64,000 bases of DNA from Bremerella volcania (GTDB lineage: Bacteria > Planctomycetota > Planctomycetia > Pirellulales > Pirellulaceae): NCBI RefSeq assembly GCF_007748115.1, contig NZ_CP036289.1, forward strand, positions 3,038,001-3,102,000, read 5' to 3'. Below are positions 10,709 through 15,014 of this stretch, one piece after another. How positions within the stretch are numbered: the first letter of the stretch is position 1; every line of letters begins with the position of its first letter. Under the pieces are notes generated by a model, which was given only the letters and a program-made list of their open reading frames with translations, made no database searches and was not told the DNA's origin. The position numbers and the translations under genes are program-made.

Positions 10709-10993
10709 TTGAGTGACGTTTCGCAGCCCGCTGGTCCAATGCAATTTTCTGAGGCAGCTATCTTCGGCCGGGTCGTTGAAAGTTCGGGCGAACTTTCTGT
10801 AGAGATAGCGGAACACATTCTGTCGCTCGCGATCTCAGCGGATGACCAACGACGCGTAAAGGTCCTCTTGGAAAAGAACGCCGGTGGTCTCTTGACCGAA
10901 GCTGAACATGAGGAGCTAGAAAACCTCAACCACGTTGCCGATTTACTCTCGCTATGGCATTCACGAGCGCGGCGTGCGCTCCGTTCAAAATAA
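10709..10993 (+). CDS. Small acidic partner of the HNH gene, unknown function
   Basis: This 94-residue, mostly helical protein ends with LLTEAEHEELENLNHVADLL and a basic tail ARRALRSK. Small proteins of this sequence type recur immediately upstream of HNH genes in cyanobacteria and planctomycetes, which suggests an obligate partner. The start is TTG with AAGGGA 8 nt upstream. Its stop TAA shares an A with the ATG of the HNH gene (TAATG), so translation is coupled. An antitoxin-like or regulatory role is possible but not shown. Confidence 0.65.
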   Translation: MSDVSQPAGPMQFSEAAIFGRVVESSGELSVEIAEHILSLAISADDQRRVKVLLEKNAGGLLTEAEHEELENLNHVADLLSLWHSRARRALRSK

Positions 10994-11394
10994 TGGATGC
11001 AGGGCTGGTCCAACGTGTTCGTCAGCGAGCCAACGATGTCTGCGAATACTGCCGCATGCCACAAGCAGTGCACCTGCTAACTTTTCCCATCGATCATGTG
11101 ATTGCACGTCAACATGGCGGTGAGATGGACTTGGAGAATCTGGCGTTGTCCAGCGTTCGCTGCAATAGCTTTAAGGGGCCAAACATCGCGGGACTCGATC
11201 CTGAGTCGGGTGAGTTGACACGGTTGTTTCATCCGCGAACCGACATTTGGGAAGAACATTTCGAGGTTCGTCAGGCATACATTCACGGCCAGACGGCGGT
11301 TGGCCGTACAACCGTTGTCGTCTTGAACATGAACCATTCCGACTATGTTGCTTTGCGTGAGTCGATTATTCTCGAAGGGAGATTCCCTGGTTAA
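10993..11394 (+). CDS. HNH endonuclease with a substituted zinc ligand
   Basis: The 133-residue protein has the HNH core: CEYC (C17, C20), DHVIARQHGG (D34, H35, H41) and ENLAL...RCN (C57). Related proteins normally carry a second CxxC before the final Asn; here the first Cys is Ser54 (SVRCN), so the structural zinc site has only three Cys. The tail (GPNIAGLDPESGELTRLFHP, then a GRTTVVVLNMN strand) is characteristic of the family. It overlaps the upstream small gene by one base. The frame is open to 10954, but the coupled ATG is the natural start. Confidence 0.85.
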   Translation: MDAGLVQRVRQRANDVCEYCRMPQAVHLLTFPIDHVIARQHGGEMDLENLALSSVRCNSFKGPNIAGLDPESGELTRLFHPRTDIWEEHFEVRQAYIHGQTAVGRTTVVVLNMNHSDYVALRESIILEGRFPG

Positions 11395-12693: not shown

Positions 12694-12916
12694 TGATGGG
12701 AACCCAAGGGGGAATCGTCAGATCGTTGGCAGATGCAACTGACTATAACGCGAAAGGGGAACCGATTGCATCCGTTTGGAAGGCATTCTTGGCGGATCGA
12801 GCGGATGTTTTAGCGATAAATCCTGAGCGACATGGCCAGCCCGTGCCGGCCGACGTCGGCTAAATTTCAAGATATGGAAAAAGCTTACCTCTTGAGGACA
12901 CGCCATGTGACTATTA

Positions 12917-14248
12917 TCACGACACGGTCCAGTCGATTTGTTCGAGGATCGCTCGCAACTTTCGTCCTCGATCGGGATGGATCATTTCCACAAACGAAAC
13001 ACGGCCTGCCAAATGACTTTGGAAGTCATCATGCCCTTCTCGATTTTGAGAAGCGGGGCCCGTTCGAACACAGTTGGACAAGATTGCTTTCAGGCGATCG
13101 TAGTCCTTCCGCAAGATATTGGGTCGTTTGTTAACGACAATTCCCGCGATTCGTTGTCGCACTCCTTTCCTCATGATCTTGGTCTTGCGGTAGTGCACCG
13201 TATAGCCCTCTTCCATGGCGATAGCGGCTACGTGAACGGAGAAGCGACGGCAGATTCGAGCGAACTCGCAGTCGCCGGAGAATGCCAGGTCATCCGCATA
13301 GCGAGTAAACGAGGCATTCATCTTGCGGGCTAAGCCGGCTAATCGACTGTCCATTCGAAAGGCACAAAGGTTTGCCAGGACGGGTGATGTTGGAGCCCCT
13401 TGCGGCAGGTGAGGACGCGCATAACGGCGTATTTTGTATTGAATCTTTGCCGGTGGGGCGTGATCCAACGCATTCCAGATCTCGGTTGGGGCGGAGTTCG
13501 TACAGAGACCCGTGAGTAGGTCAGCGACGCAGTCAGGGTAGCCGAGCGAACGAAAGATCGCCTGAACCTGAGCGGCGCGAATCGATGGGAAGAAGTCCTG
13601 AAGATCCATCTTGAGGACAACTTCCCTGCCAATATGCGGACGGGCAAAGGAAGAAATCGAACGGCCGCATCGAAAGCCGTGCGAGGCATCGTGCGGCGGC
13701 AAATGGTTTAAGATGTCTTTCAGAATTCGACGCTGGATAGTCTTCAGTCGAGGCTTGGGGGCTTCGATCAGACGAAACTCTCCGGGCCGCTTGGGAAGCA
13801 GGCGATAGCGGTAGTGTTGCAGCTTCGGCTTATTCTGTTTGGCTTCGAGTTGGCGTCGATCTGAGAACCAAGCCAGTTCGCCTGGCTTGAGGTCGAGCCA
13901 ATGCGACAGGTCTTGCGGCGTTCGAAGGTTGAGGGGAGCTTGCCAGGTCGTTGTAACCGCAGGGGCGACCATTTCAGGGGCGGGCCTGAGCAAACTCGAG
14001 AACTTGAATCGCCCATTTTGATAAGCGTTGCGAAAACCCTGGTCAGCGAGAAGGAAGGAGACGACATCCGATTTTCGGGGTCGAATACGATCGCCGAAAG
14101 TTTTCGCGAGACGTTTAGCGAGGGGACGTAGCCAGCGGCCTCGTTTGGAGAGGATCTGGCTGCCACGCTCAACCAATGCATCGACGTCAAATGGCCCGTC
14201 GACAAAGACGCCCGCTAAGTTAATGGCGTAGAACTGAATCGTGTGCAT
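12917..14248 (-). CDS. Retron-type reverse transcriptase with long N-terminal extension
   Basis: This 443-residue enzyme carries RT motifs in order: RT1-like RLLPKRPGEFRLIEAP (149-164), HGFRCGRSI (190-198), motif A MDLQDFFPSI (D215), LPQGAPTSP (281-289), catalytic YADD (317-320), GYTVHYRKTKIM (348-359) and RQRIAGIVVN (364-373). It should make branched msDNA from the adjacent RNA. The retron NAxxH motif appears as FARPH (201-205) and the VTG of motif 7 as IAG (367-369), so it is a divergent member. Residues 1-145 form a basic, helical extension of unknown function, longer than in compact retron RTs. The ATG lies only 7 nt from the a2 repeat, without a clear Shine-Dalgarno. No effector gene adjoins it. 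Confidence 0.9.
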   Translation of the reverse strand: MHTIQFYAINLAGVFVDGPFDVDALVERGSQILSKRGRWLRPLAKRLAKTFGDRIRPRKSDVVSFLLADQGFRNAYQNGRFKFSSLLRPAPEMVAPAVTTTWQAPLNLRTPQDLSHWLDLKPGELAWFSDRRQLEAKQNKPKLQHYRYRLLPKRPGEFRLIEAPKPRLKTIQRRILKDILNHLPPHDASHGFRCGRSISSFARPHIGREVVLKMDLQDFFPSIRAAQVQAIFRSLGYPDCVADLLTGLCTNSAPTEIWNALDHAPPAKIQYKIRRYARPHLPQGAPTSPVLANLCAFRMDSRLAGLARKMNASFTRYADDLAFSGDCEFARICRRFSVHVAAIAMEEGYTVHYRKTKIMRKGVRQRIAGIVVNKRPNILRKDYDRLKAILSNCVRTGPASQNREGHDDFQSHLAGRVSFVEMIHPDRGRKLRAILEQIDWTVS

Positions 14249-14255
14249 GAAAACA

Positions 14256-14427
14256 GGGTGGCGAAATGGCTAACGCGTCTAGTCTGGCTTGAGCCATCAT
14301 GCGCGAGGCGCATCGTTGCTCAAGCGATGGAATTGCTTACCATTCAGGGTGCTCCGGGGTATCCCCGGAGAGATTTCATTCACTGAAACAGATGAAGAGG
14401 AAATCAGCTTAACGCATTTCGCCACCC
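14256..14427. repeat. a1/a2 inverted repeat bounding the retron RNA
   Basis: GGGTGGCGAAATG (14256-14268) and CATTTCGCCACCC (14415-14427) are exact reverse complements 146 bp apart. Inside the arms, the minus strand carries two related 9-mers, GCGTTAAGC (14415-14407) and GCGTTAGCC (14276-14268). Confidence 0.95.
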
Positions 14428-14428
14428 C
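14256..14428 (-). ncRNA. Retron msr-msd RNA
   Basis: Read on the minus strand, the RNA runs from about 14428 to 14256. The ends are a perfect 13-bp repeat: a1 at 14427-14415 and a2 at 14268-14256. Directly after a1 the RNA reads GCGUUAAGC, whose G at 14408 is a candidate branching guanosine, similar to the UUAGC context of known retrons. The msr part has an 8-bp stem with a 3-nt loop (14352-14370) and a weaker stem (14372-14377 with 14400-14405). The msd part is a long imperfect hairpin (14287-14325): an 8-bp outer stem, an internal loop and a 6-bp inner stem. The whole RNA sits immediately 5' of the RT gene, the canonical order. Confidence 0.88.
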
Positions 14429-14645
14429 GCATGAATTCTAGCGGGTTGCTTTGAAGAATGCGAAGACGTTTGACCTGGCCAGATGGGCCGAAAGAAAATT
14501 AGTTCCGCGCACGACGAACGTCAGCCTCGTGCCATGGACTTGAACAGAAAGTCGAACAAGAGACTGAGACATCGGTAAGCCGGTCGAAGCGCCCGCCGGT
14601 GGGACGCTTCTTTGCCGACATTTAACCTAGATGTGAAATCTGTGA
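14429..14645. other. Gap between cold-shock gene and retron
   Basis: No gene is apparent in these 217 bp apart from the retron promoter. A hairpin at 14584-14611 (GAAGCG-CCC with GGG-A-CGCTTC) lies just 3' of the cold-shock gene. It has no U-run on the minus strand, so any termination of the csp transcript would be weak and read-through into the retron is possible. Confidence 0.4.
14435..14464 (-). promoter_or_regulatory. Predicted promoter of the retron transcript
   Basis: On the minus strand, TTCGCA (14464-14459) and TAGAAT (14440-14435) match sigma-70-type -35 and -10 boxes at 4/6 and 5/6 positions with an 18-nt spacer. The expected start, 7 nt further on, is the G at 14428, immediately before the a1 repeat. 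The agreement between the predicted start and the RNA end supports both calls. Confidence 0.55.
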
Positions 14646-14843
14646 CTAAACAGGCTTCACGTTTTCGGCACGTGGACCCTTAGGGCCTTGGCCTTCGGTG
14701 TAGGAGACGCGCTGACCTTCGTGAAGTTCCTCGAAGCGAACGCCGTCCAAATTCGAGAGGTGGAAAAACAGGTCCTTGTTCTGACCCGTGTCGATGAAAC
14801 CGAAGCCTTTGTCGGTGAGACGTTTGATGATACCTTCCGGCAT
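14646..14843 (-). CDS. Cold-shock domain protein (CspA-like)
   Basis: The 65-residue protein is a single cold-shock OB fold with both RNA-binding motifs, KGFGFID (RNP1) and DLFFHLS (RNP2). It should bind single-stranded RNA or DNA and melt structure. ATG 14843 (MPEGIIKRL) follows AAGGA at about 8 nt; the longer frame to 14888 adds residues not seen in the family. It is the nearest same-strand gene upstream of the retron RNA (217 bp). Csp genes are common housekeeping genes, so the link may be chance. Confidence 0.92.
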   Translation of the reverse strand: MPEGIIKRLTDKGFGFIDTGQNKDLFFHLSNLDGVRFEELHEGQRVSYTEGQGPKGPRAENVKPV

Positions 14844-15014
14844 GATCCATTCCTTGAGAGCAAATTTAGCAGGACAGCCGGGAAACACTTTGTTTAACGG
14901 TAGTCATTGCATAAAAGAGCATTTTACGACGAAAACCGCCCGAAGGATAGGACGCTGAAAAAGTTCCCCCGACATCTTAAAAAAGGGATGTGCGGACGGC
15001 TTTTCGGCCTGCCC

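What the first reader, a model, noticed from the sequence alone, without database searches (positions are those of the whole stretch)
12917..14464. Complete retron with divergent RT
The sequence shows a retron unit in canonical order: a -35/-10 pair, an RNA with a 13-bp perfect a1/a2 repeat, msr hairpins, a long msd hairpin and an RT gene starting 7 nt after a2. Retrons are anti-phage systems in other bacteria. The RT has FARPH instead of NAxxH and IAG instead of VTG, so it belongs to a divergent branch.
Basis: partly seen in the sequence, partly recalled or inferred. Interest (0 to 1): 0.92.

Follow-up and report, generated by a model that had tools for sequence, protein, structure and literature searches.

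The report
Solo retron of an untyped family
A planctomycete chromosome carries a retron, a gene pair that should make a small DNA-RNA hybrid, from a family found in many bacterial phyla that has its own conserved RNA but no recurring partner toxin gene beside it, so its job is an open question.

Summary
At 12917-14464 (minus strand) lie a promoter-like pair, a 173-nt structured RNA and a 443-aa reverse transcriptase (RT) starting 7 nt after a2. The RNA is far more than chance: fold z = -7.32; in 16 sequences (window plus 15 relatives) 25 of 39 pairs show two-sided changes, and none of 500 shuffles reached any of five measures. A covariance model finds the RNA upstream of the RT in 75 of 80 named loci, the best hits of a capped search, and at E<1e-3 in 18 of 21 loci of a sister subfamily not used to build it. 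No Rfam family matches. The RT is a retron RT (nearest solved: Ec86) in a clade (100/99) apart from type XIII and from RTs that I take for Mx162- and Mx65-like; PADLOC holds it only as RT_other/RT_outgroup. Its N-terminal five-helix domain has no known fold. No neighbour gene family recurs in more than 7 of 94 loci, and the RT tree largely follows phyla. Best reading: a true retron of an untyped family without a cis-encoded effector. msDNA and function are untested.

The parts
14435..14464 (-). promoter-like pair TTCGCA-18-TAGAAT
   Evidence: 9 of 12; 0.9 such sites expected by chance in the region; TATAAT-like hexamers enriched before the RNA in relatives
14253..14430 (-). retron non-coding RNA (msr-msd), full covariance-model match
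   Evidence: 137.2 bits; the window copy (as L001) is one of the 21 model rows; the only strong full-length match in the genome
14409..14427 (-). a1 strand of the closing helix (13 bp, bulge C14414, 5 bp)
14408..14408 (-). inferred branch (priming) guanosine in TAAGC
   Evidence: AAG invariant in the 16 rows of A1; present in 63 of 75 loci; role inferred from Simon et al. 2019 (PMC6868368, passages)
14372..14405 (-). msr hairpin 1 (variable sequence, covarying)
   Evidence: helix 2: 4 of 5 pairs with two-sided change
14352..14370 (-). msr hairpin 2, CTCCGGGG-ATA-CCCCGGAG, most conserved element
   Evidence: helix 3, 100% of cells paired
14287..14325 (-). msd hairpin (outer 8 bp, inner 6 bp)
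   Evidence: helices 4 and 5 (97.3 and 98.8% of cells paired)
14272..14284 (-). conserved GACnnGACnCGTT motif next to a2, inferred start of the template
   Evidence: several invariant or nearly invariant columns; role inferred
14256..14273 (-). a2 strand of the closing helix
12917..14248 (-). retron reverse transcriptase, 443 aa
13943..14248 (-). N-terminal domain (aa 1-102), five-helix bundle, no known fold
   Evidence: models; no convincing match
13634..13648 (-). region X motif FARPH (NAxxH position)
13289..13300 (-). catalytic YADD
   Evidence: YADD in 67 of 68 rows, SADD in one
13142..13150 (-). region Y motif IAG (VTG position)

Best explanation
This is a genuine retron of an untyped family without a cis-encoded effector. 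One transcript from about 14428 folds with a1 paired to a2 (pairing shown by covariation; start inferred). The RT binds the conserved msr hairpins (inferred), uses the 2'-OH of G14408 as primer (inferred from the conserved AAG at the end of a1) and copies the msd hairpin from the GACnnGACnCGTT motif into an RT-DNA of roughly 55-75 nt (inferred), giving a branched msDNA-RT particle. A family-specific five-helix N-terminal domain is part of the RT (predicted with high confidence). Since no toxin gene is encoded beside it in any consistent way, the particle most likely acts through this domain or through partners encoded elsewhere on the chromosome, as a sensor or adaptor and not as half of a cis-encoded toxin-antitoxin pair (inferred, weaker).
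For: RNA: z -7.32. 39 pairs, 25 with two-sided changes; 93.9% of cells paired against 79.8% shuffled and at most 48.0% when slid; none of 500 shuffles as high. The model finds it upstream of the RT in 75 of 80 named loci (65 of the 70 not used to build it) and in 18 of 21 subfamily-B loci at E<1e-3 (none used). 0 of 4 type XIII and 0 of 5 other myxobacterial retron-RT loci match; of 14 further loci only the two relatives, Burkholderia L261 and Tsukamurella L262, match. RT: PADLOC RT_other 2.4e-152, RT_outgroup 6.9e-145; the first 18 Foldseek rows are retron RTs; clade A+B 100/99. Selection: third codon positions differ at 58%, first and second at 24 and 19%, over 442 codons between the window and its nearest relative. 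No partner: no neighbour family in more than 7 of 94 loci; of 149 nearest ORFs from 40 loci no Pfam or PADLOC family matches more than 2. Long inheritance: group labels need 11 changes on the RT tree, least possible 8, shuffled mean 36.6.
Against: Literal NAxxH and VTG are absent. 5 of 80 named loci show no RNA: L117, L128 and L140 begin within the RT gene, but L101 and L137 have upstream sequence and still lack it, as does L014. The RNA sequences for the covariation test and the model were picked by a visible hairpin, which favours good ones. Presence is patchy: by my count 16 of 60 relatives and 6 of 9 genomes of the genus, and two genus members have other genes between the same flanks, which fits a dispensable, defence-like element as well. 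Some neighbours do match defence models (61 PADLOC families hit among the 149 ORFs, many being alternative models of a few proteins). The neighbour search covers ORFs of 70 aa or more and would miss a tiny toxin or a trans-acting effector.
Confidence: 0.85

Rival explanations
1. An ordinary anti-phage retron whose effector is encoded elsewhere in the genome: phage damage to the msDNA particle frees or activates a trans-encoded toxin.
For: Retrons studied in their hosts (E. coli, Bacillus subtilis, Salmonella) act in phage defence (PMC12548924, passages). Patchy presence and a locus occupied by other genes in two sister species.
Against: The Pfam families shown for neighbours (25 of 136) are largely metabolic or transport genes; the RT tree largely follows phyla; none of the 80 best viral-contig hits aligns before residue 85. 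The one linked candidate found, a membrane protein beside subfamily B, is absent from all 16 genomes tested that carry the window's subfamily.
Confidence: 0.4
2. A single-gene system: the N-terminal five-helix domain is itself the effector or the piece that binds its target, as fused domains may do in types XI and XII.
For: The domain is aligned in 50 members across phyla, predicted confidently alone (pLDDT 86.3) and in the full protein (93.9). PADLOC lists single-gene RT fusions (RT-Protease_XI, RT-TIR_XII).
Against: No invariant column and only M1, A12, R28, W39 nearly invariant in 50 members, so no catalytic site is visible; no Pfam family for the window's copy; no PDB fold (best E 1.3). 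Sister subfamily B has a matching RNA but a different N-terminus.
Confidence: 0.3
3. A housekeeping (non-defence) retron: the msDNA particle serves a normal cell function and is kept by inheritance within lineages.
For: Sister subfamily: 26 genomes of one planctomycete family match at E<=1e-40 and only one genome of that family is listed without a match (matches may include other RT types). RT tree follows phyla. Myxobacteria: msDNA in 27 of 28 strains and vertical inheritance (Simon 2019, passages). A 2015 paper reports msDNA acting in gut colonisation (PMC4569332, start of abstract).
Against: In the window's own subfamily presence is patchy (16 of 60), one genus member carries a broken copy (G004), and some loci lack the RNA.
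Confidence: 0.25
4. A decayed relic that no longer makes msDNA.
For: NAxxH and VTG are changed; a fragmented copy exists in G004.
Against: Intact ORF, YADD present, codon-position pattern of purifying selection, covarying RNA.
Confidence: 0.04

Closest known systems
PADLOC RT_other (PDLC02949) and RT_outgroup (PDLC03740, described as 'retron')
   Same: Best HMM matches over nearly the whole RT; RT_other covers residues 8-441, so the N-terminal domain too. The RT clade is thus already catalogued.
   Different: Only RT models; I saw no assigned type, RNA or partner for them in these tools. The founding paper (Mestre et al. 2020) is not held.
Myxobacterial retrons Mx162, Mx65, Sa163, Ne144
   Same: Extended RT N-terminus, vertical inheritance, branch G in CAGC for Mx162 and Sa163, and Mx65 also lacks the N of NAxxH (passages). 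The Myxococcus member of this family also reads CAGC.
   Different: RTs that I name by recall as Mx162-like (L150, L151) and Mx65-like (L149) lie outside the A+B clade and have no R1 match. Ne144 was not available.
Type XIII retrons (PADLOC RT_XIII)
   Same: Third-best PADLOC match (4.2e-98).
   Different: RTs lie outside the A+B clade, though they do not form one clade themselves; no R1 RNA match in 0 of 4 loci (three called XIII by PADLOC, L018 by the tree); no recurring partner gene here.
Retron Ec86 (Eco1), PDB 7v9u and 7v9x
   Same: Best solved relative by sequence (4.5e-31) and by fold (5.0e-21, target TM 0.79).
   Different: Its solved chains are about 110 residues shorter, so it lacks this N-terminal domain; it is solved in complex with its effector (title).

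Membership tests
Retron | RT of the retron clade, not group II or DGR | tested here: met
   DGR RTs were compared by fold only, and the tree holds a single long-branched group II row
Retron | structured RNA upstream of the RT closed by an a1/a2 inverted repeat | tested here: met
Retron | conserved guanosine at the inner end of a1 | tested here: met
   invariant AAG in 16 rows; 63 of 75 loci; of the 12 others 8 read CGAG or CCAG by eye, 4 neither
Retron | region X NAxxH and region Y VTG | tested here: not met
   FARPH and IAG; N in 2 of 68 rows, VTG in 7 of 68. Not strictly defining: 14 of 16 validated retrons have each (PMC6868368, passages)
Retron | branched msDNA is made | not testable with these tools
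   needs total nucleic acid
Tripartite anti-phage retron | co-encoded effector gene | tested here: not met
   trans effector and very small ORFs not excluded
Tripartite anti-phage retron | protects against phage | not testable with these tools
   needs phage assays
Type V retron (cold-shock effector) | CSD_V / Se72-type effector | tested here: not met
   csp at 14646-14888 scores 37.9 bits against a cut-off of 82 for retron_eff_Se72 and 2.2e-10 for CSD_V; it is also present at the locus in G001 and G005, which lack the RT
Type XIII retron | RT groups with RT_XIII; shared RNA | tested here: not met
Mx162 / Mx65 lineages | RT groups with them; shared RNA | tested here: not met
   reference RTs named by recall
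Any Rfam 15 family | match at gathering score | tested here: not met
   window whole, three loci; with lax threshold on 14200-14500 only three weak unrelated matches

The most novel reading that the evidence does not exclude
An ancient retron family, spread over Planctomycetota, Acidobacteriota, Verrucomicrobiota, Gemmatimonadota, Myxococcota, Actinomycetota and three classes of Pseudomonadota and inherited mainly within phyla, that works without any cis-encoded toxin: the msDNA particle itself, through the RT's own helical domain, carries out a regulatory or sensing role that is not toxin-antitoxin abortive infection.
Probability: 0.35. Interest if true: 0.85.

Novelty: new variant of a known kind. 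Interest (0 to 1): 0.6.

Why it matters
Retrons were found through msDNA in myxobacteria, and what retrons without a linked effector do is still unclear (some lack proximal effector genes: PMC8867640, passages). This family gives a defined RNA that matches no Rfam 15 family, a covariance model, two subfamilies that share the RNA but differ in the RT N-terminus, and members in cultured genera (for instance Paraburkholderia, Undibacterium, Massilia, Myxococcus). That makes a direct deletion test possible, and offers new RT-RNA pairs for DNA production.

Tried and rejected
Cold-shock gene as effector (type V): rejected, a generic CSD gene kept with and without the RT. HNH/PtuB-like gene at 10954-11394 as partner: rejected, no match at E<=1e-6 in the eight stretches searched from G001, G002, G004, G005, G006 (two), G007, G008. 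N-terminus as death-like EAD1 domain: one of 50 members at E 0.029, the window's own copy none; not pursued. Weak hits of the N-terminal profile to designed helical proteins (best 8.4e-5) taken as helix-repeat matches; this is a judgement. Subfamily-B membrane protein as effector: within 210 nt downstream of the RT in 9 of 20 subfamily-B-like loci and 2.5 kb away in a tenth, but in 7 of the 8 further-tested genomes of that family it lies away from the RT match, and it is absent from all 16 subfamily-A genomes tested; Pfam and PADLOC give nothing. Viral origin: not supported.

Rows dropped. From the first RNA alignment (A1): L003 (cut), L014, L015, L038, L041, L042; the model later found RNA in L003, L015, L038 and L041. 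From the tree: the Tsukamurella RT (my pattern missed its YGDD), group II L269, and five of the 21 subfamily-B loci; no DGR row was in the tree. In one search eight named loci were left out as partial or atypical. In one search L122 (a metagenome bin labelled Bordetella parapertussis, label doubted) was given its own class 'unk' (without it 10 changes); labels were typed by hand from record titles. Neighbour ORFs over 900 or under 90 aa were not in A7. Mestre et al. 2020 and a 2021 review could not be read.

Full report
What is there. The window lies in a 6.5-Mb single-contig genome (G000); kin are planctomycetes by the titles. On the minus strand a 443-aa ORF (12917-14248) is preceded by a 173-nt RNA (14428-14256) and a promoter-like pair (14464-14435). 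The closing helix is longer than noted: 13 bp, a bulged C14414, then 5 bp ending at AA 14410-14409, directly before G14408.

Is the RNA real? The window sequence folds at -79.4 kcal/mol against -49.77 +/- 4.05 for shuffles (z -7.32, 0 of 200 as low). I aligned 16 upstream regions, the window's and 15 from relatives found through the RT and chosen because the hairpin could be seen. The consensus has 39 pairs, 25 with compensatory change on both sides. Against shuffles, 93.9% of cells pair (79.8% expected), cells changed on both sides number 98 (26.6 expected), covariation is 0.459 (0.179 expected), with 0 of 500 shuffles as high for any of the five measures. With partners slid by 1 to 3 columns at most 48.0% of cells pair. 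The structure was derived from these same sequences, which favours it over slid versions. By eye, in three rows the aligner put a gap in the wrong place within a1/a2, so the count for that helix is conservative.

How widespread? 75 of 80 have a match upstream of the RT, 73 of them at E<1e-12; 10 of the 75 had been used for the model. L117, L128 and L140 begin within the RT gene; L101 and L137 lack the RNA despite upstream sequence. Of 21 loci of sister subfamily B, none used for the model, 18 match at E<1e-3, one (L046) at 0.0054, L051 only by a short hairpin and L045 not at all. Of these 21, 16 are placed in B by the tree, the rest by sequence only. Type XIII loci (0 of 4) and the five other myxobacterial retron-RT loci (0 of 5) do not match. 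Of 14 further loci two match: a Burkholderia relative and an actinobacterial (Tsukamurella) plasmid relative at E 1.1e-5. Titles name Planctomycetota, Acidobacteria, Verrucomicrobia, Gemmatimonas, Myxococcales and alpha-, beta- and gammaproteobacteria; many are metagenome bins whose labels may be wrong. No Rfam 15 family matches. In the window's genome there is one strong full-length copy.

The RT. PADLOC's best models are RT_other and RT_outgroup, then RT_XIII. NCBIfam's St85 model matches below its cut-off; group II and DRT2 models score far lower. The nearest solved structure by sequence and by fold is retron Ec86; the first 18 fold matches are retron RTs, then group II (2.3e-10), DRT2 (3.7e-10) and DGR (3.9e-9). 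In a 72-row tree subfamilies A and B form one clade (100/99), A 99/95 and B 100/95, with the type XIII rows and the RTs taken as Mx162- and Mx65-like outside; the type XIII rows are spread over three branches there. YADD is kept in 67 of 68 aligned rows. Region X is mostly [FYH][AV]xPH (first residue F 47, Y 8, H 6, G 3, N 2, A 1, C 1; last residue H in all 68) and region Y mostly xAG, VTG in 7. By Simon et al. 2019 (PMC6868368, passages read) 14 of 16 validated retrons have NAxxH and 14 have VTG, so these motifs are typical and not strictly required.

The N-terminal domain. Residues 4-77 are predicted as five helices (full model pLDDT 93.9; residues 1-102 alone 86.3). No Pfam family for the window's copy, no PDB fold match better than E 1.3. 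In 50 members no column is invariant and only M1, A12, R28, W39 are nearly so, which argues against an enzyme and for a binding or scaffolding role (inference). Subfamily B has another N-terminus, often starting MGLFDFIRQLFFG or similar, of a kind also seen in some type XIII RTs and the Mx65-like RT.

No recurring partner gene. Among 94 loci, clustering all ORFs of 70 aa or more within 8 kb gives no family in more than 7 loci; by eye the largest clusters look like transporter-type, sulfatase-like and DUF1559-like proteins. Of 149 nearest ORFs from 40 loci, no Pfam or PADLOC family matches more than 2; among the Pfam families shown (25 of 136) are aconitase, uroporphyrinogen decarboxylase, queuosine synthesis and the like. 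Against this reading, 61 PADLOC families were hit at E<=1e-6; many are alternative models of one kinase beside L065, others are PDC-M05A/B, PDC-S07 and mad8, so a few loci do have a defence-like neighbour. In subfamily B a membrane protein follows the RT in 10 of 20 loci; it also occurs in all 8 genomes of that family tested, in 7 of them away from the RT match, and in none of 16 subfamily-A genomes, so I do not count it as an effector.

History. Within the genus 6 of 9 genomes have the RT (G004 in broken pieces). In G000, G002 and G008 it lies between the bestrophin/sulfatase side and a beta-helix gene. G001 and G005 have the same flanks with other genes in between; in G006 the bestrophin gene and the RT lie on different contigs. 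So it comes and goes over short times. Over long times the RT tree follows taxonomic groups: 11 changes where 8 is the least possible and 36.6 the shuffled mean (labels assigned by hand from titles). Of the 80 best viral-contig hits none aligns before residue 85, and no phage record covers 80% of the RT (44 records); one of 139 plasmid records does, a 1.1-Mb Burkholderia replicon.

How it most likely works. Shown: conserved paired RNA, AAG at the end of a1 in all 16 rows of A1 and in 63 of 75 loci of the wider set, intact retron-type RT under purifying selection. Inferred from retron biochemistry: 2'-OH priming at G14408, copying of the msd hairpin from the GACnnGACnCGTT motif, a small RT-DNA branched to the RNA. 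Inferred and weaker: with no toxin beside it, the particle acts through the N-terminal domain or unlinked host partners. Defence through a trans effector remains the main rival.

Known or new? Retrons are known, and this RT clade is already in PADLOC without a type. Searches of the held papers for retron with Planctomycetes, Rhodopirellula, Mx162, census, outgroup, orphan and vertical inheritance listed no title or abstract start that describes this RNA or a planctomycete retron; I read passages of four papers and opened none of the others, and the key classification paper was not held, so it may have listed this family. A 2022 review (PMC8867640, passages) says that some retrons seem to lack proximal effector genes. 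I rate it a new variant of a known kind.

Noticed in passing
window 12813-12866 (-): The 54 bases starting about 50 nt past the RT stop match (72%, E 4.4e-4) the last 18 codons of an outer-membrane-like gene that occupies this slot in sister genome G001; in G002 a weaker scrap (12 codons, E 0.13) lies on the other side of the retron. The retron may have replaced that gene.
   Followed up: partly
L249 5986-7340 and L250 5946-7822: Between the same flanks two sister genomes carry different genes (an OMP-like ORF; a DUF1559-like and a lipoprotein-like ORF, named by eye), so this is a variable slot.
   Followed up: partly
window 10709-11394 (+): Small ORF followed by an HNH gene with weak PtuB (Septu) similarity (1.6e-9); no match to the HNH in the genus stretches searched.
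   Followed up: partly
L043-L063, L272-L291: Sister RT subfamily B: 26 genomes of one planctomycete family have an RT match at E<=1e-40 and one listed genome of it has none; most B loci have the same RNA type. Near-universal presence is unusual for a defence system.
   Followed up: partly
L020, L149 and subfamily B RTs: RTs of different retron clades start with a similar short amphipathic-looking peptide (MGLFDFIRQLFFG, MSWLDWFKGWFSPKP, MSFLNWLTSLFKPKP).
   Followed up: no
L262 2677-3951: Actinobacterial plasmid RT related to this family with YGDD in place of YADD and a recognisable RNA upstream.
   Followed up: no
G000:C1:2857106-2857360 and 2449829-2450089 (outside the window): Two EAD1 (effector-associated domain) matches over Pfam's cut-off in the same genome.
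   Followed up: no
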